A stretch of DNA of 64,000 bases from Membranipora membranacea (Eukaryota > Bryozoa > Gymnolaemata > Cheilostomatida > Membraniporidae): contig OU612067.1 of NCBI GenBank assembly GCA_914767715.1, positions 3,844,001 to 3,908,000 of the forward strand. The letters are read 5' to 3'. A program made the position numbers and the translations under genes. Shown here in pieces: positions 4,412 through 59,112 of the stretch (the first letter of the stretch is position 1; each line of letters opens with the position of its first letter). Below the pieces are notes generated by a model, which was not told the DNA's origin, ran no database searches, and saw only the letters and a program-made list of their open reading frames with translations.

Positions 4412-6170
4412 GGTACAAATTTGAGTGCAGATCAATTTAACAGCCATTTCACATCCATTGCAAAATCAATCACAAAGAACCTTGTTGTAACAGATGAGAT
4501 GACATTTCCCGTATCCGAACATAATTTGACAGACATACCACAATTCACCCCTTTCACATGTACAAGAATATTGTTCCACATTCCTGATAGTAAAAGTACA
4601 GGACCTGACAGAATTACAGTGAAGATGTTGAAGCTTGTTTGGCCTTATATTGTGGATATTGTCACCGATATGTTTAACAGGGTTTTATGCAAAGGACAGT
4701 TCCCTTCAACTTGGAAACTAGCTCGAGTTTCACCAATACATAAATCTGGGGATATAAATAAAACATCAAATTATAGGCCAATTTCAGTCTTGCCTGTTCT
4801 TTCAAAAATATTTGAGAAACACATAAATCACCATCTGCAAGAATATCTCACTAAGAACAAAATCATCTATGAGCTTCAATGTGGATTTAGAAAAGGCCAT
4901 TCTTGTTCAGACAGTTTATTTAAAATTATTTCAGACTCTTTGGTGGAGAAAATTAATGGAAATGTTATGACATTACTTTTTTCTGGATTTTAAAAAGGCA
5001 TTTGACTGTGTATCCCATGTTTTACACAATAAGTTGAAGGCTTGCGGCATCGGAGGAAATATGTTAAAACTTCTTGACACCTTTCTGACAGACAGAAGGC
5101 AGTTTGTTAAACTCAATAATATTGAATCGTGTAGATTGCCTATCACAATAGGGGCCCCTCAAGGTTCAATCCTAGCACCAACTCTGTTTCTCATCTTCAT
5201 AAATGATTTATTAACGTCATCATCATATGCATATGCTGATGATATAGTGTTCCTGTCATCTAATAAAAACCTTCAGCAACTAAAGGCAAAGGCAACTGAA
5301 GATTTAAGTGGCATTTTGGATCGGTGCAATCGTAACCGGATGGTTATAAATGTTCAGAAATCTCATTACATGCTACTTAATATCTCAGATCCGCTTTGTG
5401 ACCTGGAACTGTACATAGGGCATGAAAAAATAAACAGACAGAGAACTACAAGGCTTCTGGGTTTGGTGTTGAATGACTCGCTTTCATGGCAGGATCATCT
5501 AGAGTATGTATATAAAAAGGTACAACGGAATGTTTACCTACTTCAAAATTTGAGATACTTCTTGGATATAGCAAGTGCCCGCACATTTTACTTCCAGTTT
5601 ATTTATTGTCACCTTTTATCATATATCCATATCATTGGCAACTTGTCCTGCAATAATGCCCTCAATAGATTATTTTTGTTGCAAAAGCGGGCTTTACGCA
5701 TTATCACAAATGTGCATTACATCCCATATTATCTCATTCCAACCAAATCCATTACACAATCATTACAACTCCTACCTCTTCCTAAGCTTGTTTGTTATTT
5801 CACTTCACTTTATTCGCATAAGATAAACAATTTTTTAACACCTCCATTTATATATAGAGGATTTAAGAACACTACCAAGATCAATTTTCGTGATAAAGAT
5901 TTACTTTTATATCATACAGACAATCTAAGATACAAAGTTTCTGCTACATACAATTGTTTACCGTTACATTTGAGATCTAAAGAGAAGTTCAGTTCATTCA
6001 AAACTTTACTTTTCAACCATATATTATCGACTTGACCAACATCATTGATGATATTATTTCCTTTTTGTTTCTCTTTTTTTGTTTCAAAAAATGTTTTTCT
6101 GGCACTGAGTGCAAAACATTTCGAATGAGATGACTTTGGTTGCCAATAAAAGTATATATATATATCATTT
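4412..6170 (+). mobile_element. 5'-truncated CR1/L2-like LINE (RT part)
   Basis: The translated pieces carry non-LTR reverse transcriptase motifs in order: the fingers region (DSKSTGPDRI), RPISVLPVLSKIFEK, the palm motif around KAFDCVSHVL, GAPQGSILAPTLF, and the active-site SYAYADDIVFLS. The 3' end is CCAATAAAAG followed by TATATA repeats. A one-base insertion near 4980 (…LLFSGF then stop, against LLFLDFKKAFD in the sister copy at 42300-46485) breaks the frame between the two open pieces, 4364-4993 and 5034-6035. The copy starts inside the ORF2 N-terminal third, so endonuclease and ORF1 are missing. The two copies are very similar, which implies recent activity. Confidence 0.85.
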
Positions 6171-22402: not shown

Positions 22403-22411
22403 GTTATGCAA
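22403..22411 (+). repeat. 9-bp target-site duplication, left
   Basis: GTTATGCAA. The same nine bases recur at 33283-33291, on the other side of the foldback element. The empty site in blocks A and B has it once (as TTGCATAAC). Confidence 0.85.
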
Positions 22412-23816
22412 GGAAGCGCGACAACTTGGCCCGAGCCAAACTTGGCCCCAGCCAAACTTGGCCCGAGCCAAACTTGGCCCCAGCCAAACTTGGCCCGAGC
22501 CAAACTTGGCCCGAGCCAAACTTGGCCCGAGCCAAACTTGGCCCTAGCCAAACTTGGCCCGAGCCAAACTTGGCCCGAGCCAAACTTGGCCCTAGCCAAA
22601 CTTGGCCCGAGCCAAACTTGGCCCGAGCCAAACTTGGCCCGAGCCAAACTTGATCCGAGCCAAACTTGGCCCGAGCCAAACTTGGCCCGAGCCAAACTTG
22701 GCCCGAGCCAAACTTGGCCCTAGCCAAACTTGGCCCGAGCCAAACTTGGCCCGAGCCATACTTGGCCCCAAATATATAACTTGGCCCGATGCAATGAAAC
22801 CTGGCCCCAATTAGTAAAGCTTTGCCCCAATTAGTAAAACTTGGCCCTTAGTACTGAAACTTGGCCCCAATTAGTAAAACTTGGCCCCAAACATAAAACT
22901 TGGCCCCATGTACTGAAACTTGGCCCCAATTAGTAAAACTTGGCCCCAAATATAAAACTTGGCCCCATGTTATGAAACTTGGCCCCAATAACTAAGACTT
23001 GGCCCGAATAGAAAACTTGGAAGCGCGACAACTTGGCCCGAGCCAAACTTGGCCCGAGCCAAACTTGGCCCCAAATATATAACTTGGCCCGATGCAATGA
23101 AACCTGGCCCCAATTAGTAAAGCTTGGCCCCAATTAGTAAAACTTGGCCCAATGCAATGAAACTTGGCCCCAATCAGAATAAATTGGCCCCATGTACTGA
23201 AACTTGGCCCCAATTAGTAAAACTTGGCCCAAGGTACTGGAACTTGGCCCAAATTAGTAAAACTTGGCCCCAAATATAAAACTTGGCCCCATGTACTGAA
23301 ACTTGGCCCCAATATGTAAAACTTGGCCCCAAATATAAAACTTGGCCCGATGCAATGAAACCTGGCCCCAATGCAGTGAAACTTGGCCCTTAGTACTGAA
23401 ACTTGGCCCCAATTAGTAAAACTTGGCCCCAAACATAAAACTTGGCCCCATGTACTGAAACTTGGCCCCAAATAGTAAAACTTGGCCCCAAATATAAAAC
23501 TTGGCCCCATGTTATGAAACTTGGCCCCAATAACTAAGACTTGGCCCGAATAGAAAACTTGGCCCCATGCAATGAAACTTTGCCCCAATTACTAAAACTT
23601 GGCCCCAATTAGTAAAACTTGGCCCCATATACAAAACATGGCCCAAGGTAATGAAACTTGGCCCCAATAACTAAGACTTGGCCCAAAATATAAAACTTGG
23701 CCCCATGCAATGAAACTTGGCCCAAATTAGTATAACTTTGCCCCATGCAATGAAACTTGGCCCAAATAACTAAAACCCAATGAGATGAAACTTGGCCCCA
23801 ATTAGTAAACGCAGCC
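22412..23816 (+). repeat. AACTTGGCCC minisatellite, left arm
   Basis: A constant decamer AACTTGGCCC is followed by a variable part. From 22425 to about 22760 the unit is 16 bp (AACTTGGCCCGAGCCA), itself a near-palindrome (TTGGC-4-GCCAA). From about 22760 the units are mostly 20 bp with interchangeable ends such as CAATTAGTAA, CAAATATAAA, CATGTACTGA and CATGCAATGA. The terminal word GAAGCGCGACAACTTGG reappears inside at about 23010, so larger blocks were also duplicated. The 16-bp unit has no stop in any frame, which creates six overlapping false ORFs. Confidence 0.95.
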
Positions 23817-24055
23817 AACAAGGATAGCCAGCAACCTTCTATAGAGGTTGCCAATGGGTAGCTTTATTGTTGGCCAATATCCTCTGACTTCACCTGTCTT
23901 TGATAGGTATGCCAGAGGGAGCCACATATCCCCATCTCCCAGCAACAGATATAAGTGGTTGTAGATGCTTCTGCTTTTACACTCTATTTTCTTGCCATTG
24001 GCGGTTGCAGAAATAACTTTTCTGGACTGACAACACATAGCCAACACTTAAATAT
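23817..24055 (-). repeat. Foldback inner arm, left
   Basis: The reverse complement matches 28498-28737 over about 235 bp (words CAGTCCAGAAAA, TCTGCAACCGCCAA, GATATGTGGCTCCCTCTGGC). Fragments of open frame occur on both copies but differ in length and frame, so I do not call a gene. Confidence 0.75.
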
Positions 24056-24660
24056 TAATGTATCTACCATCCATTAGTATTGCTCCAGCATGAGAGCAGT
24101 TTATATTCGGTGGTACACATTTACTGCGGTACCAACCCTAGAGGTCTAGGCTGGGTGTAAAAATGGTTGTCACAGCTAGGTCGATGTAATTTGTAGACCA
24201 AAGTAGCATTTGTCTCCCCTAGCGAGTTGCTTAGTTATAAGAATTAGTTACATCCAGACACAAAGCCCTATTTACTTCCTGTGAATCTGTATCACATCCA
24301 GGAAATTTGAAATAAGTCAATACGTAGCCTTTGATTGAATAAACTGCCTTTGGCACCACCTCATACTCAACACAAAAAGTGGTGGTCAGGAAATGTTACT
24401 AAAGGTACTACATGAATCAGCAAATCCAGCTTGGTATCTGAATACCTAAGGCTAAATGCTAAATACTTAACTGGCACAGGGGCATCTTGGATCAATAAGC
24501 AATTGGCATTCGAAGAGGAAGGTTGTGTTCATATTCTCTCTCTTTAACTGCAACAATTAAGTTTGTATAGCTATCCCTTGCAGATTATAGAGTAATTCTT
24601 TAAATCTGTGATTATTTGGACTAGGATATAAAAAGCTCCCAACCCCAATAGCCCTTTTCA
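24056..24660. other. Foldback core, non-coding
   Basis: No gene or motif recognised. It lies between the left inner arm and the Tx1-like LINE. Confidence 0.35.
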
Positions 24661-24672
24661 GGGCTGACTTGT

Positions 24673-25455
24673 GTGAGGTGTGTGTGTGTGGTGCGTGATG
24701 GCTGGACCTGGAAGAAATCTGAGCGATCTGTGGAGTTCAATCATGTGGATGGATTTACTTCTGTTAAAAATTTGATGAGTTTTTTGAGTAGCTATTGTAT
24801 TAGTGTGGGGGATGTTGATGGTCTGAATTTCGGTCGCAGCAAAGGGGTCGAAGTCACTGCGAAGTCTGTGTCAAAGTACAATGAGTTGATGCGAAAATTG
24901 ATGGATGTTGAAGAGGTTGAAATAATAAGGAGCAGTGAGGTTTACACTGTGGTTACACTGCATAATGTGCCTTTTGAGTTTGACTTGAAGATTGTGTACC
25001 CAAAGATGGGGGAATACGGCAGGGTTCTGGACCATGTCAAATTTGTCCATGAAGATTTCCCATCCATTTATAATGGTGTATACAAAGTCAAGATGGATTT
25101 GAAGAGCTTTCCCCCGTCAAACTTTAGCTTTAGCCGCCGTAATGTGATGGTGAACTTCCCAGGCCAATCTCGTAAAGGCCTGAAGTGTGGTGAGGGGGGT
25201 CATATGATCAGGGACTGCACATCCGACCCAAAGTGTAGAAACTGCGGTGAGATAGGCCACAGGGCAAGGGACTGTTCCTCCGAGATTGTTTGCAGTGTAT
25301 GTAGTGAAACCGGTACGAATAGTTTGGCTAAAATAGCGGCAAGAAAACCGAAACGGGGCCCAAATAAAAAAACAGGGGGAATGGGTAGTAGGAGGAAGCA
25401 AGATGGTAATACAGGAAGCGATAAAAGTGATGACATCAGCCAGCCAGGGTCATGA
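24673..25455 (+). CDS. LINE ORF1 with CCHC zinc knuckles (Tx1/L1-like)
   Basis: A 260-residue open frame. An N-terminal nucleic-acid-binding-like region (about residues 1-165) is followed by zinc knuckles. The first knuckle (KCGEGGHMIRDC) lacks its opening cysteine. The second (CRNCGEIGHRARDC) is a complete CX2CX4HX4C. The third is partial (CSVCSETG). A basic tail follows. This layout, upstream of an endonuclease-RT frame, is that of ORF1 RNA-binding proteins in L1/Tx1 LINEs. The start codon is uncertain and the true 5' end may lie earlier. Confidence 0.75.
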   Translation: MRCVCVVRDGWTWKKSERSVEFNHVDGFTSVKNLMSFLSSYCISVGDVDGLNFGRSKGVEVTAKSVSKYNELMRKLMDVEEVEIIRSSEVYTVVTLHNVPFEFDLKIVYPKMGEYGRVLDHVKFVHEDFPSIYNGVYKVKMDLKSFPPSNFSFSRRNVMVNFPGQSRKGLKCGEGGHMIRDCTSDPKCRNCGEIGHRARDCSSEIVCSVCSETGTNSLAKIAARKPKRGPNKKTGGMGSRRKQDGNTGSDKSDDISQPGS

Positions 25456-25689
25456 GGGGGAGCAAAGGGGAGTTGTAACACGGGAAGTAAGCCAGCTGAC
25501 CCTCCATTGCAGGTTTCAGAGCCACCAAACATAGAACCGAATAAAGTCAAGTCCTCTTAGGTTGAGATCTGCAACTGAGGTTTCAAATGTGTAGAGTATG
25601 TTTTCTTCTTTCTGTTTTATGTAAGGTTCATCTAGCAGAGTTTTCTGGTTCCATACACTTAACAACTATATGGAATCAACAACAACCGT

Positions 25690-27165
25690 GTCTCATTCTA
25701 CAAAGTTGAAGTTTATGACTATTAACGTCAATGGTATTGGCAATCAGGCTAAAAGGCAGAATGTCTTGTTTTTTCTCGAAAACCTTGATTGTGATATTGT
25801 GTTTGTCCAGGAAACTCACTGTTGAGTTACCTGAATGGAAGGGGGAATATGTTGCTAGTTAGGGGGCTAGTAACGCTCGAGGGTGTGCTATTCTCATGAA
25901 GCGTAACATTGCTGATGGCCTTTTATGCTATGTGGACATGGATATCAATGGTCAGAAGATTAGGCTAGTTTGTGTGTATGCTCCTAACCATCCCACTGGT
26001 AGACAGAGATTAAGATCAGATGAATTGTCAGCCTCGCTTTCTCAAACTAGCAAAAACATTGTGGCTGGAGATTTCAATTGTGTCCATTCTTTCGCATCAG
26101 ACACTAAAAATGGCTCAGCTCAAAGTGAGGTTGGGTCTTCCGAACTTGAAGAGATGTGCACACTTTCGGTTTACATGATTCTTGGAGTGTAAATAATCAC
26201 CAGGCTGTAAGGTTTACATGGAGGCGGCCGGGAAACGATGCAAATCAAGCTAACCGAATTGACCGTATCTATTTCCCTTGGGATATCCCCATTGTGTACG
26301 ATTATTTGTCTTGTCCTTATAGTGACCATGATTGTGTTTGTGCATCATTGGATCTGGCACTGTTAGCCCGTGACTGGACTCCTGTTACTGGTAAACCATA
26401 CTGGAAACTTAATTGTTCAGTCTTGAGTGAAAGTGGATTGAGAGACATGTTCCTTGAGCTGTACTCAATGTGGCAAACACTAAATCCAGCTTATAATAAT
26501 CCTTTAAAATTGGTGGGAAAGTGTCAGATTAAGAACAAAATATTTTTGTATTGAAACTGCTCAGAGCGTAGTTTAGATTTATAAACAGGATTAAAAATCT
26601 ATCAGATGAGCTACACTTGCTTATATCCAACTCAGCCGTCAAAGCTGAGGTGGAAAGAGTAAAATTAGAGATTTATAATTTGAATTAGACAAAGCTTCAA
26701 GCTCTTAGAGTTAGGTCTAGAATTAAAATCTTTGAGCAGGATGAGAAGAACACCGCTTTCTTTTCCAGAAGAATCAAGCAGCATAATAAACTAATATTGT
26801 TGAATCTGTCCAGGAAAAGGGCACTGGTCAACTGATTCATGATTGCCAGGGTATCGTTCATGTGATTTTTATTCGGATTTGTATACTCCAGTGCTGACTG
26901 TTTGATCAGAGGTAGATTTCCTTTTAGATTTCTTGGGTCCTTCAAACTTCGTAAATACTGATTCCACAGAAGATGGCAATAGTCCGTTTTCTATCCCTGA
27001 TATTAAGCAGGCTATCATGTCAATGGAAAACAATAAAAAACCTTTGTCCCCATCCTTGTATGCTATGTACATGGAGACGATGGTGAGAGCTATCACACAG
27101 TGCAGGCTTCTGTCCGGCTGCCCTGTTCCTGGCCCTGACAGTTGGAAGTGTTTATGCCCAGCGCC
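25690..27165 (+). pseudogene. Tx1/L1-like LINE ORF2 remnant (endonuclease, start of RT)
   Basis: An APE-type endonuclease signature begins near 25715 (TINVNGIGNQ … DCDIVFVQETHC). It continues in 25896-26192 (VYAPNHPTGRQR … IVAGDFNCV) and 26156-26554 (TWRRPGN … RIDRIYFP … YSDHDCV). Stops and frameshifts near 25825, 25862 and 26190 break the frame. The RT region (to 27165) is shredded and ends abruptly where AACTTGGCCC repeats begin. The element is dead and 3'-truncated. Confidence 0.75.
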
Positions 27166-27445
27166 AATTGGCCCCAAATATAAGACTTAGCCCCATGCAA
27201 TGAAACTTGACCCCAATCAGTAAAACTTAGCCCCAATTAGTAAAACTTTGCCCCAATAAATAAAACTTGGCCCCATTCATTAAAACTTGGCCCCGCCAAA
27301 TGAAACTTGGCCCTAATTATTAAAACTTGGGCCCATGTACTGAAAATTGGACGCAGTAACTAAACCACGGCCCCATACAATGAAACTTGGCCCCAATTAG
27401 TAAAACCTGGCCCCAAATATATAACTTGGCCATATGTACTGAAAC
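27163..27445 (+). repeat. AACTTGGCCC minisatellite, internal degenerate block
   Basis: About 14 decayed units of the 20-bp type, in the same orientation as the left arm, directly abutting the broken LINE. A word like the array terminus (GGAGCGTGACAACCTG) lies at about 27583. It may be the original continuation of the left arm, separated by the LINE, or a nested element. Confidence 0.85.
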
Positions 27446-27599
27446 TTGCCTCTGATAATATGATAATAGATAATATGAAGTCCAGCCAACTTTCAATGTA
27501 TAATGTAAGGTGAAATGGACACTGGACACAAGGCTAATCAGATGGGGATCTTTGGGAGAACAAACCATGAAAATAAGCCAGGAGCGTGACAACCTGTAA

Positions 27600-28497
27600 G
27601 GGCAATGTGTATGTAAGCCTACAGCACATCTGGCTGGTCATTGCATCAGCAGGCTGAGGATCTGCACTCGTCATAGTCTCACCTTGCCAGTACAGAATTT
27701 CCTAAACCTGTAGAGAAGGCTGCTCTGACAACCTACAAAACTCAGCCCAGCGGGCAATTAGTTGTCTAAACTGAGTTGGAAAGAGGTTACCAGAAGAGGC
27801 TGAACACTGTTGCCAATTGTATGCCATATGGACCGGTGGAAGAGGTTGCCAATGAGGGATTTTTAGCAACTTCTTCAAGAAGTTTAATATAGGTTTTATA
27901 TCCTTCTCAGGGAAGGATATAACAGGGATATTGCTAACTGTCTCTATCCAATATTAAAATTGAAAAGTTTATTTATTTGTTATATATATTTATTTAATAT
28001 GTTACTCATAAGGCCAGTAGGGAGGGAGTCAGGGGTACTGTCTGAGTGAGCCTGCTGTAGAAGGCTTCTGCCTTGCTCAGAGCATTAAGCCTAAGAGTGC
28101 AAAGACTCAACTGGAATCAATGATTCATGTTACAATAAATGTATCATTTCATAACCACCAATTTTTGTGCTGAGTGGCAAGTGGTGCCAGAAGCAGTTGA
28201 TTCAATCAATGGCCACATATTTGCCCGTTTCAAATTTTTTGGATGTGATACTGGTTCACAGGAATTAAATAGGGATGCTGATTTCTTATTTGGTTGTTTG
28301 GTGTCTGGGTGTGGAGAATTCTCGAAAATAATCGATCCGCTAGGGGAGATAAAGGCTATGTTGGTCTGCGAATTACATCGACCTCGCATTGACAACCATT
28401 TTTATACTCAGCCTAGACTTCTATGTACTATTGAAAACAGTGATGAATAAACTGTTCTCATGCTTGAGCCATACTAATAGGTGGTATATACATTATG
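27600..28497. other. Foldback core, mostly non-coding
   Basis: A 103-codon open frame (28139-28450) shows no recognisable domain. I do not call it a gene. Confidence 0.35.
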
Positions 28498-28737
28498 ATT
28501 TAAGTGTTAGCTATGCTTTGTCAGTCCAGAAAATTATTTCTGCAACCGCCAACGGCAAGAAAATAAAGTATAAAAAGCAGAAGCATCTAAAACCACTTTT
28601 ATCTGTTGCTGGGAAATGGGGATATGTGGCTCCCTCTGGCATACCCATCAAAGACAGGTGATGTCAGAGGATATTGGCCAACAAAAAAGCTGCCCATTGG
28701 CAACCTCTTCAAAAGGTTGCTGGCTAAGCCTTGCCGG
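28498..28737 (+). repeat. Foldback inner arm, right
   Basis: Inverted partner of 23817-24055. In the left arm this sequence joins the minisatellite directly. Here about 3.9 kb containing a LINE separates it from the array at 32670. Confidence 0.75.
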
Positions 28738-28744
28738 CTGGGAG

Positions 28745-31700
28745 AGTAGCCTTTCAAATCCTTTGCAAGCTTTATTCCAATTTGGATCATGAAGTCTCAC
28801 AAGAAATAAAATACATACTGGCAGGACGTCGCCAAGGATAAAAATTGCAAACAGCTTATGATCTGAATTTTGCTTTGTTGAACATTAGAACGATGCTTGA
28901 TCGTGATAGAGCAGATAGACCAGAAAGGCGAAGTGGCATCATTGTACAAGAGCTAAAGAAATATAGAATTGATGTTGAAGCACTAAGTGAGGCTTGTTTT
29001 GGTGATACTGGTAGTGCTAAGATCTCAGAAATGAAGAGTGAATCAATGCTGTCATCGCCAATATGACTGAAGACCCCCAAATCTGTAAATGATAGAATGA
29101 TCACCCTTAAACTCCCTCTAAACAAGAACAGATATTGTACTATCATTGCGGTGTATGCACCTACCGTTAGGTAGCGTATTGTAACCACGTGGCTTGTTGG
29201 TGAACAGGCCTGGATTAATTTAGGAAACAAAACACAGATTTTAGCCATATCACACCAGCAAGCCCACTGTAATTTAACCACAATATTTAGCCGCCCAGGC
29301 AATATAATGATCAAGAAATGTGCACACTATGTGTTACATGCTAATGCCTTCCCACCACACTGCACAGACCTGACCACAGCCGTCAGCTGTCCTACTAACT
29401 TCTTCAAAACAAGACATTATGATACATTTCTGTCTGCCATAATAATAACCATTGCATCGACTGGTTGGGGAAGAAGAATGCTGATTGGTTAACTATTGGT
29501 CAGATCGTTTCTAATTGGATGATAATTTTATGGAGGTGTAACGAGGCGACAACTGCTTGACCTTGAAGGTCAATACATTGAGCTCCACATCCTTATATGT
29601 CTCTTCTGAGGTCAGATATTGGTAATAAAAATAAGAGATATATAGTCGCTGCTAGCATGTTACAACTGAGTTAGTATGTATGTTCACTGATTAGCTGCCT
29701 GCCTATAGAATTTGGAAACAATGCCCTTATTATAACCGCGGTGTGCTTGACTAAGTTTTAACCACTCATGGACATTAACTATGCAGCTACAATAAGCGAC
29801 CTTACGGTACAAGGACGAATAGCCCTGAGAACATCGCACAGTTTTATCGGCAGCTTGATTCCACCTTGATGACAGTACCTAAAGAAGCTAAAATTATGTT
29901 CCTAGGTGACTTTAATGCTAGAGTTGGCCAAGATAATGAGATCTGGAATAATGTGTTTGGAAAATTTGGAACTGGACGATCTAATTCTAATGGTGAGCTT
30001 TTACTGTCTATCTGTACTGAACATCAGCTGGTGAAAACGAATACGAGCTTTAAGCACAAAGCTAGCAATAAAAACACATGGATGCATCCGAGGGCTTGAC
30101 ACTGGCACCTAATTGACTTCATTGTCAACCGCCAATGTGAATTGTGTGACATCAGTGATACTAGAGCTAGTGCCAACTGCAGCACTGATCACATCATCAA
30201 CAGGTGTTACACCAGGCTCAGAGTGCGGAAGCTCATGTGTAAATCAAGTCAGCGTCCTAGAAAACTCAATGTTAACACTATGTGGTCTGATACCATCAGA
30301 AGTGAATTAGAAACTAACATGAATGAAAAGCTCCCTGCTCTGGCAGGCTCAGTGGAAGAGAATAATGGTCCGCATTCAAGTCAACGGTGTATGAGGTGTA
30401 CAAAGAAATCTTGGAATATGTGGAGAGATAATATGCAGACTGGTTTGAGGAGAGCGATAAAGAACTGTGTGAACCGATAGCTGCTTGTAACCATGCCCTG
30501 AATGAAATGTTGAATCGTAATACCAGATCCATCAAAAACAGGTTTAGACACTACTCATGTCGTCTGCAAAAGAAATGTCATGAATTGAAAAATGAATGGT
30601 GGCAGAGTAAAGCTGCTGAACTACAGGAGCTGGCAGACATGAATGACACTAGAGGTTTCCATCAAGGACTTTAGGCAGTACGGGGTCCGAGGGTTGATCA
30701 ATCTGATCAGCTACTTTCCTCCGACAATCAGACTTTACTAACTGAGAAAAAGACCTTCTCCCTTGTTGGACAGAACATCTCAACACTCTTCTCAATGAAA
30801 GCAATGAGATTGATGATGCTCCTGACTTGGACAAAGTGAACAATGCTATGTATATGCTCAGCAATGGAAAGTCACCCGGTGCAGATAGAATACACCCTGA
30901 AATATCATATTCAGAGTGGCTCTACTAGTGCAGCACCTGCAACACCATGAGATCATTGTTGACTCTTGGAAGAGCGGAGAGCCTCCACAAGATTGGAAGG
31001 ATGCTCAGCTTATAACCCTGTTTAAGAAAGGTGATCGACGTCTCTGTGGGAAATATCAAGGCATCTCACTTCTATCAACACCTGTTAAGTATTAGCCTGT
31101 GTGTTACTCAAAAGGCTGAGCCTTTATTCAGAGGACCTACTCCCAGAGGCACAATGTGGATTTTTTGCAGGCGAAGACACTGTAGATATGATATTCTTCC
31201 TGAAGCAAATTCAAGAAGATTATGTTGAGCCGAGGATGTAATGGTGTTTTGACTTTTGGCTTTGACACTGTGAACAGAAATGCCTTGTGGGCTATTCTAG
31301 AGAAACTTGGTTGTCCTGCCAATTTCACCAATCTTGTGTCGGCCCTACAAAAAGGAGTGAATACATCAGTCAGCAGGTGAAAGGGCTTTGGTACGTGAAC
31401 TTATATTTGCAGATGATACTCCAGTTGTTGCTCAAGACCATGCAGATGCACAGGAAACTATATCTGGTTTTGCCCAGTCAGCCAAACAGTTTGGGTAAAA
31501 GATTAGCATAAAAAAGACTGAGGTGATGTACCAACCTTCACCGGGCTTATCTGACGCAGGAGATGACATCCATATTGATGGTGAAAACCTTGCTATGGTT
31601 AGCAGGTTTAAGCATCTTGGTACAACTGACACCAACGACAACAAGCTCGACACTGAACTGGAGATACGCATGTCCAATGCCTCAAAAGCCTTTGGGAGAC

Positions 31701-32660
31701 TCAGAGATCATACATGGGACAATAAGGATCCTACCATCAAGACTAAAAGTGCTGTGTACAGAGCCATTGTTCTATCAGTTCTTCTCTATGGTGTCGAATC
31801 CTGGTTTGTGTACAAGGTTACTGTTTATAAACTTAATGCATTTATGATGAGACACCTGAGACAGATACTCAACATAAAGTGGTGGCAGTTTATATCAAAT
31901 GAAAGGATCCTAAAAACAACTTCCTTACCTGGCATGTACGATATTCTCATCAGCAGATGCCTCAGCAGGACCGGTCATTTCCACAGTCTAGATAACACCC
32001 GAATACCAAAACTTATATTGCACTCACAACTCACTGATGGTACATATGGAATTGCATGCCCAAAGCTGAGATACGAGGACATCATCAAAAGAAACCCTGA
32101 AAGATCGGGAGACCCCCCTCAGATCTTGGCAGAGCCTATCCCGAAGCAGAGACGATTGGAGACTATTTATTCGTAGACGAAAGACGTCATCATCGGCCAC
32201 GATGGACAGCTAAATACTAAGAATGCAAAAATTAGCAACATGGAACTCTTTAGGGATGGCATGCTCACAGGTTTAAAAGAAACTTTTATGATGCAATTAT
32301 CACAAACCAGAATACTGTGGCTGTTGTTTGAGTTCAGAATTGCCTTCTTAAAGCATAACACAGATAACTCCAGAAATAAACACACAGTAAGCAGACCATA
32401 AATGCGGTAACAATTAGCATGTTCGCTCATTATATTGACTATTTATTTAAGGTGGTTTTCTGTAATACTTAATATATGCCACATGGAAGCTCATTTGAGC
32501 GAGATTTATACAATTTAGTTTCAATGACATGACCAACTAGCTGCATCGCCAGGTAATACTGTAGAACTGTCTTAAATGATAGGAACTGGGCGGCTAAACA
32601 TCTGTACAAGAAACTCCTACTCAGCCTAGTATATAGTTCACTTGCGAGAGATTAATATTG
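28745..32660 (+). mobile_element. Degenerate LINE in the right foldback arm
   Basis: The endonuclease start is recognisable at 28845-29066 (NFALLNIRTMLD … RPERRSGIIVQELKKYRIDV). The DFNARVGQ motif is in 29866-30099. RT/linker pieces follow at 30142-30480. The C-terminal domain is at 31523-32176 (FKHLGTTDTND … LYGVESWFV … HLRQILNIKWW). Many stops and frameshifts, plus a foreign-looking stretch at about 29200-29760, show it is dead. The clade is uncertain (RTE- or Nimb-like). Its limits are set by where the arm homology stops and resumes. Confidence 0.7.
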
Positions 32661-32669
32661 TATGAGGCA

Positions 32670-33282
32670 TGCATGGGGCCAAGTTTTATATTTGGAGCTA
32701 AGTTTTAGTATTTGGTCCAAGTTTTACTAATAAGGGCCAATTTTAATATTTGGAGCCAAGTTTTGGTTTTTGGGGCCAAGTTTTACTAATTGGGGCCAAG
32801 TTTCATTGCATGGGGCCAAGTTTTAGTATCTGGGCCAAGTTTTACTAATAGGGTCAAGTTTTATATTTGGAGCCAAGTTTTGGTATTTGGGGCCAAGTTT
32901 CATTGCATGGGGCCAAGTTTTAGTATCTGGGGCCAAGTTTTAGTATCTGGGGCCAATTTTTAGTATTTGGGGCCAAGTTTTACTAATTGGGGCCAAGTTT
33001 GGCTCGGGCCAAGTTTGGCTCGGGCCAAGTTTGGCTCGGGCCAAGTTTGGCTCGGGCCAAGTTTGTCTCGGGCCAAGTTTGTCTCGGGCCAAGTTTGTCT
33101 CGGGCCAAGTTTGGCTCGGGCCAAGTTTGGCTCGGGCCAAGTTTGGCTCGGGCCAAGTTTGGCTCGGGCCAAGTTTGGCTCGGGCCAAGTTTGGCTCGGG
33201 CCAAGTTTGGCTCGGGCCAAGTTTGGCTCGGGCCAAGTTTGGCTCGGGCCAAGTTTGGCTCGGGCCAAGTTGTCGCGGATTC
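32670..33282 (-). repeat. AACTTGGCCC minisatellite, right arm
   Basis: Same family on the minus strand. Mixed 17- to 20-bp units lie at about 32670-32990, then about 17 near-identical 16-bp units at 32991-33268. Three of these carry the shared variant GTCTCGGG for GGCTCGGG, evidence of local unit spreading. The terminal word GTCGCGGATTC mirrors the left end. The homogeneous 16-bp units lie at the outer tip in both arms and the varied units inside. Confidence 0.95.
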
Positions 33283-34060
33283 GTTATGCAATATTTTGAC
33301 ACTGAAAAAATTCAAAGCTCTTCCAGGTAAAATTATGTGTAGCTTTAGAGATTTTCCCCCTTTTTCATCGATTGCACCTATGCTGTTTCAACATCTACTT
33401 CTGTTCCAGCGCAATATGCTACCACCTGTATCAACTCTAGAGAACTGTGAAGGTTAATGAACAATGTTACTACTATAATTGTACAATGCTCCTGACACTG
33501 AAGATATATTCATTTTTAACTTATTTAGAAATAATCATCAATCAAAAATTTGGAAGTGGTAGCGTATTGCACTGGTGCTGCAGATTTTGAAACCTCATAG
33601 GTTCAATCGATGAGAAAGGAGGACAATTTCTAAACCTACACATTTTGTGTCGAAATATTGCATAACCACTGCAGTCCTAGCTGCCCAACTATTTATTGCT
33701 TTGTCCTTCTGTAGTCTTGAACACAATGTTAATCAAAGTGTTAAAAAATTTCAAAAAAGCTCAAAATCATGCCAATTTCGATGTTATTTGAATATTGCTA
33801 TCAACCGGTCAATGATTAAATCGGGATGGTCTCAGCTTTGTTTAATCGAGTGTTGCCACTCTAATCTTGACCTGTCTGGCGTAGACTATCAGACCACACC
33901 GCTGAATCTTTATCTCAATTTAATTAATTTTTTTATTAGAAAATTTCAAGCAGATACCTAATATAAAAAAAAGTAAAGGATTATTGGTAAGTATTGCAAA
34001 GAATGAGAAAATCTAAAAACTACTCATCTTGTCATGCAGTCAATTTTAATCAGGCATTCG
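33283..34060. repeat. Duplication block C, outer part (inverted)
   Basis: Begins with the right GTTATGCAA duplication (33283-33291). It continues as the reverse complement of about 1000 back to 1, holding the SINE pair (minus at 33292-33437, plus at 33554-33690) and the CAGACCACACCGCTG module (about 33780-33920). It is not adjacent to the rest of block C because of the foldback insertion. Confidence 0.85.
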
Positions 34061-43825: not shown

Positions 43826-46370
43826 GATGGCAATGAATTTTCATAGCGCATATCTTAATATCCGCGGATTGGCAAGCAAACTGGAAGAGGTTCGTTTAAT
43901 TCTTAGTGATCACAAATTTAGTATACTGTGTTTGGTTGAAACATTTTTGAATATAAAATGATGACAGCTGCCTATATGAGGAACCAGGATATACGGTGAT
44001 AAGAAGGGATAGGCTCTGTAACAATGGTGGGGGATTACTCTGCTATGTGCATAATTCACTGGTCATTGAACAACTGGAAAATTTAGATCTTTACATGGAT
44101 GAGAGTATAACAGTCAAGGTCAGACCCAGAAGCCAAAAGAGTTTTTTGGTCAACTTATATCTGAACCCACTCGCATAACTAATTCATCAAGGACACAATA
44201 TTGCTAAATCTGGTGTCATCAAATATTCACTGAGTGATCATTTCATGATAGTAGCTTCAAGAGAGATTGATAGAAATGTTAAAATATCTAAACAAAGATG
44301 CAAGGTAACATTTTTGGATTTTTCATTTGCAACACCTGAAAACACTTTTAACACATTCTCAAGGGAAAATTTTGGTTACGTGCTGTATGAAAGATCAATA
44401 GACTCAATGTTTGAGAAGTTCTATAGCCATTTGCGAATCATCTTATATCAAAACTCGTGTTTGAGAAGACTCGTTTTGTAAGAACGCATAGTCTTTCAAA
44501 ATGGTTGGATGATGAGGTAAAAATGAACGTCAAAATCAGAGATCAACTCAAACAAAACGGTGATTGGAAAGGATATAAAAAACAGCGAAATTATGTCACT
44601 AATATGATCAGACAAAAGAAGAAAAGAGCTATTTCTAATACTATTAAAGAGTCTAAAGGTAATACAAAACCTGTTTGGGATGTATTAAAGAATAAAAAGA
44701 AGGAGACTTTCCCTGCGACAAATTTGAGTGCAGATCAATTTAACAGCCATTTCACATCCATTGCAAAATCAATCACAAAGAACCTTGTTGTAACAGATGA
44801 GATGACATTTCCCGTATCCGAACATAATTTGACAGACATACCACAATTCACCCCTTTCACATGTACAAGAATATTGTTCCACATTCCTGATAGTAAAAGC
44901 ACAGGACCTGACAGAATTACAGTGAAGATGTTGAAGCTTGTTTGGCCTTATATTGTGGATATTGTCACCGATATGTTTAACAGGGTTTTAAGCAAAGGAC
45001 AGTTCCCTTCAACATGGAAACTAGCTCGAGTTTCATCAATACATAAATCTGGGGATATAAAAAACCCATCAAATTATAGGCCAATTTCAGTCTTGTCTGT
45101 TCTTTCAAAAATATTTGAGAAACACATAAATCACCATCTGCAAGAATATCTCACTAAGAACAAAATCATCCATGAGCTTCAATGTGGATTTAGAAAAGAT
45201 CATTCTTGTTCAGACAGTTTATTTTAAATTATTTCAGACTCTTTGGTGGAGAAAATTAATGGAAATGTTATGACATTACTTTTTCTGGATTTTAAAAAGG
45301 CATTTGACTGTGTATCCCATGTTTTACTACACAATAAGTTGAAGGCTTGCGGCATCGGAGGAAATATGTTAAAACTTCTTGACACCTCTCTGACAGACAG
45401 AAGGCAGTTTGTTAAACTCAATAATATTGAATCTTGTAGATTGCCTATCACAATAGGGGTCCCTCAAGGTTCAATCCTAGCACCAGCTTTGTTCCTCATC
45501 TTCATAAATGCTTTATTAACTTCATCAAAATCAGACTCATCATCATATGCATATGCTGATGGTACAGTGTTCCTGTGATCTAATAAAAACCTTCAGCAAC
45601 TAAAGGCAAAGGCATCTGAAGATTTAAGTGGCATTTTGGATTGGTGCAATCGTAACCGGATGGTTATAAATGTTCAGAAATCTCATTACATGCTACTTAA
45701 TATCTCAGATCCTGGAATTGGAACCTGGAACTGTACATAGGGCATGAAAAACTAAACAGACAGAGAACTAAAAGGCTTCTGGGTTTTGTGTTGAATGACT
45801 CGCTTTCATGGCAAGATCATCTAGAGTATGTATATAAAAAGGTACAACGGAATGTTTACCTACTTCAAAATTTGAGATACTTCTTGGATATAGCAAGTGC
45901 CTGCACAGTTTACTTCCAATTTGTCTATTGTCACCTTATATATGGTATCCATATCATTGGCAACTTGTCCTGCAATAATGCCCTCAATAGATATTTTTTG
46001 TTGCAAAAACGGGCTTTACGTATTATCGCAAATGTGCATTACATCCCATTTTATCTCATTCCAACCGAATCCATCACACAATCATTACAACTCCTACATC
46101 TTCCTAAGCTTGTTTGTTATTTCACTTCACTTTTTGCGCATAAGATAAACAATTTTTTAACACCTCCATTTATATAAAGAGGATTTAAAAACACTACCAA
46201 GTTCAATTTTCGTGATAAACATTTACTTTCATATCATACAGACAATCTAAGATACAAAGTTTCTGCTACATACAATTCTTTACCGTTACATTTGAGATCT
46301 AAAGAGAAGTTCAGTTCATTCAAAACTTTACTTTTCAACCATATATTATCCACTTGACCAACATCATTGA
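43826..46370 (+). pseudogene. LINE ORF2: damaged endonuclease and reverse transcriptase
   Basis: The endonuclease begins at SAYLNIRGLASKLEEV (about 43840), with a stop near 43960, RRDRLCNNGGGLLCYVHN at about 44010, and SLSDHFMIVAS at about 44230. The stretch before SDH is shortened, so an internal deletion is likely. RT is open in 44457-45227 and 45243-45578. The active site reads YADG instead of YADD, followed by a stop at 45577. The last piece is 45788-46177. The element is therefore inactive, while the truncated sister at 4412-6170 keeps YADD. Confidence 0.75.
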
Positions 46371-46489
46371 TGACATTATTTCCTTTCTGTTTCTCTTTTT
46401 TTGTTTTAAAAAAAAAATTTCTGGCACTGATTGCAAAACATTTCGAATGAGATGACTTTGGTTGCCAATAAAAGTATATATATTGTGTG

Positions 46490-53879: not shown

Positions 53880-54880
53880 ACTGTTTAAGCTGTTTAAGAC
53901 ATTCGACCTTACTGATGAGGATCGAAAAAAGCTAGGTGAGGTATAGAAAACGTTCACCGAATACTTTTCACCACGTGTGACGGAAGAGTTTGAGCGCTAC
54001 CGTTTTTACACACGTGTCCAGCGAAAAGATGAGAGGTTTGATTCGTTTCTTGGCTCACTACAGACATCGATTGCAACGTGCAATTTTCATGCAGATGAGA
54101 AGGATAAGGCTCTACGAGACAGAATCGTGAAAGGCATCACGTCAGAAGCAGTAAGAGAAGAACTGCTCAATGTGCATAAATGTCTGCCAGAGAGCTGAAG
54201 CGACCAAATCCTACCTAAACCAAATGGCTGAACCAAATTCCAGTCATTTTGGTTGTGCTGTGGACGCTGTCAGCATACCTAAGTACTCACCTGACAATAC
54301 ACTAAACAATAATAGAAGCAGAAACACGGATGTAAAGAACTGCAAATACTGCGGTCAAGACCACCCGCGCAGAAGCTTTCTGGCTTGTGGCAAGATATGC
54401 AGGCTCTGTGGAAACAAGAACCACTTCGCCAAAGTGTGTAAGATTCAAGGCTCAGCCAACACTGCCGGTAATACCAAACCAATCTCTGCTATAATAGCTG
54501 ACAACTCAGTTTCAGATGATATTGCATTTACTCTCAAACCTAAGAGACATGCATCTGAATGGTTCATCACAGTGAAATGTGTTAAAAGCCGCTGAAGCTT
54601 AAAATTGATACTGGTGCATCATGTAATGTTATACCCAAATCGATATTCAATGCTCTGTCTAAGGAAAATCAGCTTAGGAAAGATATGTTCGGCGCTGAAC
54701 TGACATCATATAGTGGGCACACGCTGCCTGTATTAGGTGTTACCTCTTTACTGCTAGAAAGAGATCATGATTTTTCTGTGCATGATTTTAAAGTCACCAA
54801 TGCTGGTGATCGCTGTTTATTAGGATTTCCAAGTGCATGCTCTATGGGATTGGTGAAACCTATAGATGCCATTTCTAATT
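53880..54880 (+). pseudogene. Gypsy-type gag and protease remnant
   Basis: The gag-like frame (about 53890-54198, …FTEYFSPRVTEEFERYRFYTRVQRKDERFDSF…) has an in-frame TAG near 53945. The nucleocapsid zinc knuckles are at 54340-54450 (CKYCGQDH … CRLCGNKNHFAKVC). A retropepsin with the catalytic DTGA triad begins near 54607 and ends in the LLGFPS flap-side motif near 54825. Stops at about 54196 and 54592 break the frame. No 5' LTR or primer-binding site found. Confidence 0.75.
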
Positions 54881-54884
54881 CTGG

Positions 54885-56340
54885 GTGTCCAAGGAAGCCA
54901 TTGAGGATGTATCAATTCCTCTACATGATATTATCAACCACTCACTCGACACTGGCACATTCCCTGATATGTGGAAACGCGCGCAAGTAGTTCCAGTACC
55001 GAAGACCAAAACTCCCACCATCTACAAAGACTTCCGACCCATCAGCCTATTATTTCATCTCGGCAAACTCCTAGAGCAGGTGATCCTAAGTAAGATGACG
55101 ACACATCTTGCTGATGTAATAGATGTGAATCAATATGCCTACCAACAGAAACTGAGTACCACTGACGCACTACTGCAGCTACTCGATGACTGGACATCAG
55201 CTCTTGATCAGAACTCAAACATTAAATTTGTCCAGAACGCAGTTTTAGATTTTTCAAAGGCGTTCGACAGAATGCAACACCCGATCTTATTGTCTAAAAT
55301 GAACTCGCTAGGATTTAATTCCAATGTTATCAACTTGGTAGGAAGTTTTCTAAATTCAAGACAGCAGTGTGTCAAGTTTTCTGGACAATTTTCCACATAC
55401 AAGCCCATTGATGTTGGTGCACCACAAGGCACTAAGCTTGGGCCTATTCTCTGGCTGATATACGTTAATGACTTGAAAGCTGAAGGTTTTAATTGTGTGA
55501 AGTACGCAGATGACACCACATTTTATAAGCCTATTGTAAACCTCACCGATGACAATGTCTCTGATGCTATATCAAATGCTAATAGTTGGTCTTTAGAAAA
55601 CAGTATGCTTCTCAACTCAAGTAAGACTGTTGTATTGAATATTGCTTTTTCTGACCGACCTGGTATGAACCTCGATGTAAACCCCAGTGATGATACTTTT
55701 ATCTCCCCATCTAAATCTGCTAAACTATTAGGAGTCACTGTAGACTCTCAACTGTCTTTTAGTGACCACATAGACTCTGTCGTGAGCAAATGCAATTGCA
55801 GACTGTATCTGATGAAGCAGCTTAAGACCATGGGTATGAACACCGCAGGACTGATAACATTCTATGCTGCCAATGTCAAACCCGTTCTTTCCTACGCCTG
55901 CCCAGTATGGTTTCAGTTTATCTCCGAAGCCGATAAAGAGAAACTAGAGAAAGTGCAGAGATACGCTACACGCATGATGATGCCACACATAGAGCACTAT
56001 GACGATAGACTGACCAAGCTAGCCTTACCCTATATATCCAACTTCTTAATGTCTCTATGCAGCGAACACTTTTTAAAAATTTCAACCAATAATACCCATC
56101 CGCTGAACAATAGAATCAGACCTAACACTCAAAGAAAATCCGCCCGTAAAGCAGTAATCGACAAATACCGACCCAGCAAATGCCGCACTGTAAAACGGCA
56201 GAACAGCTTTTTTGAATTTTATATGAGATTTTTCAACTAGTGCAATATTTTTCCATCAATTTTTATGTAAACATTTCAATTTTGTCAACCTTTTTAGGAG
56301 TGATACCGGAAATGTCCAAATAAACAAACATCAAACATTC
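54885..56340 (+). mobile_element. LINE RT inserted in the Gypsy pol gene
   Basis: An unbroken 451-codon frame (to 56240) with non-LTR RT motifs: FRPISLLFHLGKLLE, LDFSKAFDRMQHP, GAPQGTKLGPILW, and the active site KYADDTTF, then the post-palm CPVWFQF. It starts inside the RT N-terminal part (5'-truncated), ends with a 3' tail AATAAACAAACATC, and separates Gypsy protease from Gypsy RT. It is the best preserved RT in the window and a different family from the LINEs at 4412 and 42300. The apparent overlap with the protease frame is accidental. Confidence 0.8.
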
Positions 56341-56349
56341 TGTATCATC

Positions 56350-57553
56350 GCAATTTTCTATTGTTTTTGAGGGTTTAGGAAAACTAGACTGTACACATGC
56401 ACTAAGGATAAAAGATGATGCTAAACCTGTCATACAGAGCCCTCGTAGAGTACCTTTTAGGATAAGAGATAAATCACGCTCTACATTAGATTCTATGGAA
56501 GCCTCACACTATAGTTAAGGTCAAAATCCCTACTGATTGGGTACACCCTATAGTAAATATACTGAAGCCAGATGGTTCACTGAGGGTTTGTCTGGACCCC
56601 ACTGAGCTAAACAAGTGCATCGAAAGGGAGCATTATGCTTTGCCTACTGCAAGTGAGATATTTTCCAGGATTTCTGGATCCCGTGTGTTCTCAACTCTAG
56701 ATGCAACGTCAGGTTTCCTTCAGTTAGAACTAGATGAAGCTAGCAGCTATCTTACAACATTTGCCACACCATTTGGGCGATACAGATTTCTTAGACTGAC
56801 ATATGGCATGAGTTCTGCCCCAGAAGTTTTTCACAGGACCGTAAATGAGTTATTTTGTGATATTGCGAGTGTTGAGACATATGTTGATGATATTTTGATA
56901 CATGCACCCACAAATGCGGAGCATGATAAAATTCTAAAAGCTGTGCTAGCTAGATGTGAGAAGAAAAATCTCAGGCTAAATCTAAGCAGATGTAAATTTG
57001 AGAAAGCAGAACTCAAATATTTAGGTCACATAATTGGCAATGGCCAAATCAAGGCTGACCCCGAAAAAATTCAGGCCATAATAGAGATACCTGAACCAAG
57101 CTGCTCGGAGGAAGTAAAGCGCATCATAGGCATGGCTACGTAATTCCCGAAATTCTGTCCAAACCTCTCTGAAATTACAGCACTGTTGCGTAATCTGACA
57201 ACCAAAGGCGCTGAATTGGTTTGGGGCAAGCAGCAGCAAAATTCTTTGGATCAACTGAAGCAACTTTTAAGCGCAAGTCCTGTGGTAAACCTTTGATCCC
57301 AGTAAACCAGTCACGCTGAATGTAGATTCAAGTAAAAGCGGCATGGGAGCTGTCATCATGCAGGACGATCAGCCTATTGAATACGCGAGCTGTGCGTTAC
57401 CCCATGCTCAACAGGCATATGCTCAGATAGAAAAGGAATTCTTAGCAATACAGTATGGCCTTAATCACTTTAATCAGTATGTCTATGGACAACAGGTCCA
57501 TGTGGAGACTGACCACCTACCATTGTTAGGTATTATGAGGAAGGGTCTAAATT
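56350..57553 (+). pseudogene. Gypsy-type reverse transcriptase and RNase H remnant
   Basis: The connection VFEGLGKL lies near 56370. RT motifs follow: VNILKPDGSLRVCLDP, LDATSGFLQL, TFATPFGRYRF and the active site YVDDILIH (about 56880). RNase H begins at LNVDSSKSGMGAVI near 57320 and continues through EKEFLAIQYGL to ETDHLPLLGI. Frameshifts or stops occur near 56515, 57140, 57290 and 57553. Motif order and YVDD are typical of Ty3/Gypsy pol. Confidence 0.8.
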
Positions 57554-57555
57554 AG

Positions 57556-59112
57556 TTGACCCCTAGGCTGTTGCGCATGCGATTACAAACACAATATTAC
57601 GACTTCAGACTAACATTTAAGCCAGGCTCGAAAATGTTCATATCTGATACTCTGAGTCGCGCATACCTAGATGAGATATGCGAATTCCATGATGATTTTG
57701 TCACATGTGACTATAACCAGGTGCATGCTGTTGTCACTGGTATACTGTCAAACCCTTCACTCAAACAGAAATTCAAAAATGCAGTTTCTGATGACGCAAG
57801 CATGAAGGTACTTAAGTCATACATACTTGGCGGCTGGCCAAATAGCAAGCATGGCTGTATAGAACCACTAAACGCGTTCTTGAACGTGAAAGATGAGTTT
57901 TCCTCCCATGAAGACTTCATTCTGAGGAATAATCAGCTTGTAGTACCACTAGCAATGCGGCGAGCTGATGTACACAAAGGACATTTAGGGATATCAAAGT
58001 GCCATGAGCGTGCTAGAAATGCAGTTTATTGGCCTGGATATCATGGTCAGATTTCTGACATGGTAGAAAGCTGTAGCGTGTGTCAGGAAAATATGCGTGC
58101 TAATGCCAAAACAATACTTGAGCCATACGAAATACCAGAATACCCAATGCAGACTGTAAGCATGGATGTTTTTTACCTTGAAGGTAAAGAGTTTCTAGTC
58201 ACAGTAGACAGATTTTCAAAGAGGCCGAGCTGTTATGAGCTCAAACAATGCAGCTCAAAAGAAATCATCGAAATTCTTGATAGGCAATTTCTTGATTTTG
58301 GAAGACCTGAAACTATTATATGTAATGATGCCACATATTTCACATTATATGAGTTTCAATGCTTCACTGAAAGTGCAGATATAAAGCTTGTTACTGTCAG
58401 CCCATATACTTCTAGATCAAACGGCCCAGCAGAGAGCATGAATCAGACTGTAAAATCATGCCTAACTAAAGCTAAGCAGACAAATCACACTTTATTTGAT
58501 TTAATAAGAGCAATAAGGTCTGCGCCGATTGGTGATGGATTACCCTCCCCTGCAGTGCTTTTGCAAGGTAGAGCGCTGCGGAACCGTCCAAACATTACTC
58601 CAACACAGCTAAAACATCAGAATATAGTCTTGGAAAGTATCGATAGGCGCTTAAGGCAGCGACATGCTAGAGGTAACAATGATAATAAGGCAAGCAAGCC
58701 TAGCGAATTTGAGTTTATTGAAGGGATGGATGTGTGGAGGAAATCAGGACATAGAAAATGGTTAGAGGACAAGATCATTGGCCATGCATATACCCCAAGA
58801 AGCTTTATGATTGAACTAGCTGACGGCCGGGTATTCAGATGCAATCAGTCGTATCTTAGGGCAAGGAAACCTGTAGTTCAGACTGAGGTCAACCGAGATT
58901 CACCTCAGAGACCATCTCGACTAATCAACAATAGTAATATAAGGGCAAGAGAGCATAATGGCCCCACAACTCAAGCAGCACAAATATCCAGCTCTAGTGC
59001 TCCCAGACATACCCCCAGTTTGCAATCAAGATCCAGTGTGCCCACAAGGTCTGGGCGGACATCAAACCCTGGCAATCTATTTGGGTACAAAAAGGATTTT
59101 GGTGTTCTCTAG
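57556..59112 (+). CDS. Gypsy-type integrase, long open piece
   Basis: A 518-codon open frame following a single TAG. It holds the end of RNase H (DTLSRAYL), an H2C2-like zinc domain (HKGHLGISKCHERAR … CSVCQENM), and the catalytic core with three acidic residues: D in VSMDVFYLEG, D in ICNDATYF, and E in NGPAESMNQTV. A C-terminal tail follows (WRKSGHRKWLEDKIIG … YLRARKP). No 3' LTR or env-like frame follows; it ends 175 bp from the lysozyme stop codon on the opposite strand. Confidence 0.8.
   Translation: MTPRLLRMRLQTQYYDFRLTFKPGSKMFISDTLSRAYLDEICEFHDDFVTCDYNQVHAVVTGILSNPSLKQKFKNAVSDDASMKVLKSYILGGWPNSKHGCIEPLNAFLNVKDEFSSHEDFILRNNQLVVPLAMRRADVHKGHLGISKCHERARNAVYWPGYHGQISDMVESCSVCQENMRANAKTILEPYEIPEYPMQTVSMDVFYLEGKEFLVTVDRFSKRPSCYELKQCSSKEIIEILDRQFLDFGRPETIICNDATYFTLYEFQCFTESADIKLVTVSPYTSRSNGPAESMNQTVKSCLTKAKQTNHTLFDLIRAIRSAPIGDGLPSPAVLLQGRALRNRPNITPTQLKHQNIVLESIDRRLRQRHARGNNDNKASKPSEFEFIEGMDVWRKSGHRKWLEDKIIGHAYTPRSFMIELADGRVFRCNQSYLRARKPVVQTEVNRDSPQRPSRLINNSNIRAREHNGPTTQAAQISSSSAPRHTPSLQSRSSVPTRSGRTSNPGNLFGYKKDFGVL

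What the first reader, a model, noticed from the sequence alone, without database searches (positions are those of the whole stretch)
22403..33291. A 10.9-kb foldback transposon whose inverted ends are built from a self-complementary minisatellite
The sequence shows a 9-bp duplication (GTTATGCAA) on both sides, inverted termini, and arms of AACTTGGCCC repeats of opposite orientation. Homologous blocks A and B show the same SINE site empty, with a single 9-mer, so the boundaries are defined without a database. FB elements of Drosophila and TU elements of sea urchin share this architecture (established knowledge), but this unit sequence and the hairpin inside each unit look new to me. Having no transposase, it may be mobilised by a MULE-type or other 9-bp-TSD enzyme (inference).
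Basis: partly seen in the sequence, partly recalled or inferred. Interest (0 to 1): 0.9.

Follow-up and report, generated by a model that had tools for sequence, protein, structure and literature searches.

The report
Foldback transposon family, Mutator type

Summary
The element is 22412-33282, inside the 9-bp duplication GTTATGCAA; two homologous blocks in the window show the empty site. The host genome (339 Mb, 18 contigs, unnamed) holds the terminal word 100 times exactly. Of 28 inward-facing end pairs examined, 22 have 8-9-bp target duplications, against 4 of 756 mismatched pairings. Each of the 22 has one GGAAG-type cap (once GTAAG) and one GAATC-type cap. Arms carry 1-39 leading 16-mers. 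This copy encodes no recognised transposase. Nine sister copies keep decayed FLYWCH zinc-finger and MULE transposase exons, below Pfam cut-offs, the combination known from Tm1 of nematodes and Muta1 of mosquitoes. So this is a new, here non-autonomous, family of Mutator/Foldback transposons. Its interior carries LINE-type endonuclease/RT pieces that were broken before they were multiplied. Only the outer 16-mer arrays are clearly self-complementary. No intact autonomous copy was found; the search meant to find one did not complete.

The parts
22403..22411 (+). target-site duplication, left copy (GTTATGCAA)
22412..22423 (+). left terminal cap GGAAG-CGCGACA
22423..22768 (+). left outer array of 16-mer AACTTGGCCCGAGCCA (21 leading units), self-complementary
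22760..23018 (+). left inner array of about 20-mers ACTTGGCCCCAATTAGTAAA, outer copy
23019..23030 (+). internal second terminus GGAAG-CGCGACA; tandem duplication of the arm start, the same junction as in sister copy L021
23031..23809 (+). left arm continued: 2 x 16-mer and the long 20-mer array
24652..26551 (+). cargo 1: broken LINE-like pieces (zinc knuckle PF00098 2.2e-11; partial Exo_endo_phos 0.0014, below cut-off)
   Evidence: parts of it also in L021, L023, L035, L037
27168..27448 (+). internal degenerate 20-mer array in left-arm orientation; in L011, L013 and L032 its counterpart lies directly beside cargo 2
27746..28742 (+). later nested insertion (ends CCCAGCGGGC...GCCGGCTGGG) absent from L011, L013, L032
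28743..32640 (+). cargo 2: broken LINE-like endonuclease/RT segment, 96.7-99.2% identical in 12 of 13 other stretches aligned
32674..33000 (-). right inner array of about 20-mers
32990..33271 (-). right outer array of 16-mers (17 units), self-complementary
33271..33282 (-). right terminal cap GAATC-CGCGACA (read on the - strand)
33283..33291 (+). target-site duplication, right copy (GTTATGCAA)

Best explanation
A non-autonomous member of a new Mutator/Foldback (Phantom/Muta-like) DNA transposon family. Shown: two asymmetric caps on inverted tandem arrays bound a unit that has inserted at many loci with 8-9-bp target duplications, and sister elements with the same ends carry remains of a FLYWCH-MULE transposase gene. 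Inferred: that transposase, supplied in trans by an intact copy, binds the repeated 16-mer units through its FLYWCH finger, pairs the two ends, cuts at the caps and pastes the DNA with an 8-9-bp stagger. Inferred: unit number changes by slippage or unequal exchange, and exchange between arms of different copies shuffles the interior, so that DNA lying between two caps, here dead LINE pieces, becomes cargo.
For: Empty sites in the window. 100 exact terminal words in the genome, 0 in the reversed-pattern control; 262 caps with up to 2 mismatches against 24 in the control. Among the 100 caps that one search listed, neighbours within 25 kb face inward in 28 cases, outward in 1, the same way in 4. 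TSD in 22 of 28 pairs (20 exact, 2 with one mismatch) against 4 of 756 cross-pairings (2 exact); each of the 22 has one cap of each type. L012 and L024 share a 5831-bp stretch at 99.7% with different flanks and TSDs, so movement is recent. With L016's own exon stretches as query, FLYWCH remains are found in 9 of 9 subfamily-B loci, the DGTFK stretch in 7 of 9 and the DFEKG stretch in 8 of 9, L016 itself counted. Of 10 ORFs scanned, two matched FLYWCH (best 7.3e-4) and three MULE (best 0.005). Muta1 and Tm1, known FLYWCH-MULE foldbacks, have the same TSD range and TIR plan.
Against: FLYWCH (20.1 bits, cut-off 23.6) and MULE (17.7 bits, cut-off 27.6) are below Pfam's curated cut-offs, and stops or frame breaks show in some copies. 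Five of the 10 ORFs matched nothing, and of 10 earlier ORFs from L012 and L018 none matched FLYWCH or MULE. The genome search with PF10551 (32 matches) reported none of the subfamily-B loci. No intact autonomous element was found. 6 of 28 pairs lack a TSD (L016, L017, L021, L022, L026, L027). L009/L010 look like one duplicated locus, as do L026/L027, so independent cases are nearer 21 of 26. In L031 I paired the inner left cap; its outermost pair gave no 8-9-bp TSD. The cap at C5:19747026 lies 3 kb from another MULE ORF, and two caps lie beside yet another MULE outside the element, so the link between family and enzyme rests on subfamily B.
Confidence: 0.87

Rival explanations
1. A foldback transposon moved by another class of transposase, for example a P-superfamily enzyme as in Galileo, with the MULE exons of subfamily B being captured cargo like the LINE pieces.
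For: The family demonstrably carries foreign cargo; foldback arms arose in unrelated superfamilies (passages). FLYWCH/MULE matches are sub-threshold.
Against: 8-9-bp TSDs match the MULE range in Muta1 and Tm1; Galileo has 7-bp TSDs. FLYWCH-MULE with tandem-repeat arms is a known combination. No other named transposase family was among the 9 Pfam families matched by 73 interior ORFs from six loci (one match, DUF7869, is of unknown function).
Confidence: 0.09
2. A retrotransposon-driven structure: the LINE-like endonuclease/RT inside moves the element.
For: EN/RT pieces fill much of the interior of this copy and many sisters.
Against: Stops are shared across copies at different loci: a stop at window 30097 in 10 of 11 copies with letters there, at 31496 in 9 of 11; 8-9-bp TSDs at fixed caps; L012 and the roughly 100-bp L009 have such TSDs without this segment.
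Confidence: 0.02
3. An assembly or recombination artefact of minisatellite arrays.
Against: Empty sites in the window, TSDs at 22 of 28 pairs, and elements of about 100 bp that need no long-array assembly (L009, L010).
Confidence: 0.02

Closest known systems
Muta1 of Aedes aegypti (active MULE, called a type 2 Foldback; PMC5225508, passages and one section seen)
   Same: 8-9-bp TSDs; terminal motif followed by subterminal tandem repeats (9 x 12 bp); transposase in two exons, FLYWCH in 13 of 14 families of that study; over 300 non-autonomous derivatives with variable repeat number
   Different: Muta1 has 145-bp TIRs and identical full-length copies; here arms reach 1.4 kb, units are 16 and about 20 bp, the caps differ between ends, and no intact copy was found
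Tm1 of root-knot nematodes (Mutator/Foldback; PMC3169594, passages and one section seen)
   Same: 8-10-bp TSDs, mostly 9; asymmetric terminal motifs (7-bp A1/A2) outside a tandem-repeat TIR of variable length; Phantom-type MULE with FLYWCH; non-autonomous classes
   Different: unit sequence and length (13-15 bp there, 16 and about 20 bp here); cargo here is LINE EN/RT pieces, there a histone-hairpin sequence in one class
Tetris of D. virilis (PMC4079207, passages seen) and FB elements of Drosophila (recalled)
   Same: inverted arms with tandem repeats, 8-10-bp TSDs in Tetris, variable middle domain, no transposase found
   Different: unit and caps differ; no sequence comparison was made
Pack-MULE / Pack-TIR elements (PMC8277862, passages seen)
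   Same: foreign DNA carried between TIRs and multiplied by transposition
   Different: that survey of 100 animal genomes counted only non-TE cargo of 100-5,000 bp, found a median of 224 bp and no Pack-MULE; here cargo is several kb of broken LINE DNA in a MULE-like element

Membership tests
Foldback-type transposon | long terminal inverted repeats built of tandem repeats | tested here: met
Foldback-type transposon | insertion as a unit with target-site duplication | tested here: met
   22 of 28 pairs against 4 of 756 cross-pairings; empty sites
Mutator (MULE) superfamily | 8-10-bp target-site duplication | tested here: met
   9 bp in 11 and 8 bp in 9 of the 20 exact cases; two more with one mismatch; none in 6 of 28
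Mutator (MULE) superfamily | MULE transposase encoded between the same ends | tested here: inconclusive
   decayed exons in subfamily B, MULE 17.7 bits against cut-off 27.6; B loci absent from the PF10551 list; this copy has none
Phantom/Muta subclass | N-terminal FLYWCH zinc finger | tested here: inconclusive
   FLYWCH 20.1 bits in L022 and 20.0 in L016 against cut-off 23.6; remains in 9 of 9 B loci
Phantom/Muta subclass | transposase groups with Phantom on a tree | not tested
   fragments too short; no reference Phantom protein at hand
Galileo / P superfamily | 7-bp TSD and a P-type transposase | tested here: not met
   TSDs are 8-9 bp; no P-type domain among families matched by 73 interior ORFs of six loci
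Autonomous transposon (this copy) | encodes its own transposase | tested here: not met
   only zinc-knuckle and endonuclease matches among 10 interior ORFs scanned; no tblastn match of genome MULE ORFs to the window

The most novel reading that the evidence does not exclude
An open-ended cargo shuttle: the mobile identity lies wholly in the two asymmetric caps plus a few copies of a two-fold self-complementary 16-mer that may serve as a symmetric, countable transposase binding site, so that interiors from almost nothing (about 100 bp) to about 20 kb, including pieces of other transposons, are swapped by recombination between arms and still move. This would be multi-kilobase Pack-MULE-like traffic, probably in an animal.
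Probability: 0.35. Interest if true: 0.55.

Novelty: new member of a known kind. Interest (0 to 1): 0.42.

Why it matters
It adds a recently mobile Mutator/Foldback family with a natural series of arm lengths (1-39 leading 16-mers; end pairs about 90 bp to 22 kb apart) and fixed asymmetric caps. That series makes a standing question testable: how many binding-site repeats a foldback end needs, and whether arm exchange rather than capture builds the interior. It also shows a DNA transposon multiplying dead retrotransposon sequence as freight.

Tried and rejected
Pattern scans of viral and prokaryote contig collections with the 16-mer found nothing; Rfam and tRNA scans of the window found nothing. 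Translated array peptides were used as bait in the protein database: weak hits; two small metagenomic ORFs (P0002, P0004) end in a cap-like GQVV(A/V)DS, a lead only. The MULE ORF near the cap at C5:19747026 (L064) was considered as the autonomous copy and set aside: the array there ends after about five units at a roughly 203-bp multi-copy repeat, no second cap was seen in the fetched 1.5-kb right flank, and the longer matches of the downstream DNA lie at places more than 10 kb from any listed cap. The MULEs at L052 and L065 lie outside their caps and were not counted as evidence. LINE-driven movement was rejected on shared stops. Row L034 (74.9% identity, partly misaligned) is kept in the stop counts but is not reliable; in L014 the stop at 30097 follows a 1-base deletion, and in L016 the stop at 31496 is TGA where the others have TAA. 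The tool listed only the first 100 of 262 caps, so the pairing counts cover exact caps down to contig C9. Paired loci were chosen by eye; six further inward pairs visible were not fetched. The 756 cross-pairings include those between the duplicated loci L009 and L010.
Full report
Observation. The duplicated 9-mer, the inverted arrays and the empty sites are present as described. The element proper is 22412-33282 (10,871 bp). Each end begins with a five-base cap that differs between ends (GGAAG left, GAATC right), then CGCGACA, then 16-mers AACTTGGCCCGAGCCA, then about 20-mers that keep the ACTTGGCCC half. The 16-mer arrays fold on themselves far beyond shuffles, the 20-mer stretches tested do so hardly or not. 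The left arm repeats its own start at 23019; the same junction occurs in sister copy L021.

Genome-wide test. The window lies in an unnamed 339-Mb genome of 18 contigs; that it is an animal is inference. I fetched the inward pairs that I recognised in that list. With the window and one nested pair (in L033) these gave 28 pairs for the duplication test: 22 have 8-9-bp duplications (20 exact: eleven of 9 bp, nine of 8 bp; two with one mismatch), against 4 of 756 cross-pairings. L009/L010 look like one duplicated locus, and so do L026/L027, so independent cases are nearer 21 of 26. Each of the 22 carries one cap of each type; the two pairs with like caps (L016, L021) have none, as expected of recombinants; L017, L022, L026 and L027 have unlike caps and no duplication. 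In L033 an element sits inside the array of another copy, with a duplication made of array sequence. Among the 100 caps listed (of 262 counted, control 24), 28 neighbour pairs within 25 kb face inward, 1 outward and 4 the same way, and 25 of the 28 have one cap of each type.

Variation. Sixty parsed arm rows (one cap listed twice) hold 1 to 39 leading 16-mers; of 558 16-mers counted (nested ends counted more than once) 398 are ACTTGGCCCGAGCCAA. In most pairs the arm with the GGAAG-type cap has the longer 20-mer array; L017, L022, L026 and L027, all without a duplication, are exceptions. The smallest elements (L009, L010) are about 100 bp, little more than two caps back to back. L012 and L024 differ at 17 positions of a shared 5831-bp stretch while having different flanks and duplications, so the family moved recently.

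Interior and cargo. The window copy holds broken LINE-like pieces: a zinc-knuckle ORF and endonuclease fragments. The segment 28743-32640 is not a late insertion into this copy: it is 96.7-99.2% identical in 12 of 13 other stretches aligned (L034, 74.9%, is only partly alignable). Of the elements these stretches come from, only L016 and L021 lack a duplication. A stop stands at window 30097 in 10 of 11 copies with letters there (window counted) and at 31496 in 9 of 11. The segment was therefore most likely dead before it was multiplied, and it travels as freight. A later insertion at 27746-28742 is absent from L011, L013 and L032.

Which enzyme. The window copy encodes no recognised transposase. 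Eight sister elements (L012, L024, L029, L020, L022, L019, L028, L031) share with L016 a different 5-kb centre, wholly or in part, at 90.8-97.6% identity. With L016's own stretches as query, FLYWCH remains appear in 9 of 9 loci, a MULE stretch with DGTFK in 7 of 9 and a second with DFEKG in 8 of 9. In Pfam, 2 of 10 ORFs match FLYWCH (best 7.3e-4, 20.1 bits, cut-off 23.6), 3 match MULE (best 0.005, 17.7 bits, cut-off 27.6) and 5 match nothing; 10 other ORFs from L012 and L018 matched neither. The pieces lie in different frames, separated by what look like introns, and stops occur in some copies. This is the domain pair of Phantom/Muta MULEs. Genome-wide, PF10551 gives 32 matches, none of them in these nine loci, and only one of the MULE ORFs there (L051) has even a weak tblastn match to subfamily B (E 0.003). 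A MULE family with an 804-aa open frame (L066; L067 98% identical with one stop) shows no match to the element loci at E 0.01.

Comparison. Muta1 (8-9-bp TSD, terminal motif plus nine 12-bp subterminal repeats, over 300 defective derivatives with variable repeats) and Tm1 (asymmetric 7-bp end motifs, 13-15-bp repeats, 8-10-bp TSD, Phantom-type enzyme) have the same plan. Galileo's tandem repeats contain transposase binding sites (abstract), which suggests what the 16-mers do here. Hence a new family of a known kind. A 13-base piece of the unit was not found in the paper library. In the listings (titles and starts of abstracts) I saw no paper on a Mutator foldback carrying LINE EN/RT freight; a survey of 100 animal genomes, limited to non-TE cargo, reported no Pack-MULE (passages).

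Limits.

Noticed in passing
27746-28742: Nested insertion with ends CCCAGCGGGC...GCCGGCTGGG and a possible 2-bp AG duplication, absent from L011, L013 and L032; it contains an inverted 78%-identical partner (28081-28740) of 23812-24460.
   Followed up: partly
22384 and 33677, also 604, 1020, 6893: The target site lies in a repeated segment bounded by GGCAGCTAG and its inverse CTAGCTGCC, which looks more like a TIR element than a SINE.
   Followed up: no
4415-6161 and 44718-46483: Two 94.9%-identical copies of a region with an RT-like ORF (by eye).
   Followed up: no
54155-59112: ORFs resembling an LTR retrotransposon (zinc knuckle, protease, RT, integrase-like), judged by eye from the ORF list, not searched.
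   Followed up: no
L066, L067 (C8:16127587, C10:19582518): MULE ORFs, 804 aa open in L066 and split by one stop in L067, 98% identical in protein; further PF10551 matches of nearly the same score at C6:23442626 and C7:28441141 were not compared. Probably a separate, recently active MULE family.
   Followed up: partly
L052 and L065 (C5:26802667, C5:27086165): A MULE ORF lies just outside a foldback cap in two 95.6%-identical loci; larger composite or duplicated neighbourhood.
   Followed up: partly
L033:296-4438: An element inserted into the array of another copy of the same family, with duplication GGGCCAAG taken from the array.
   Followed up: yes
P0002 and P0004 (metagenomic ORFs): Two short predicted proteins that read like this array ending in the cap; possible relatives in other organisms.
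   Followed up: partly
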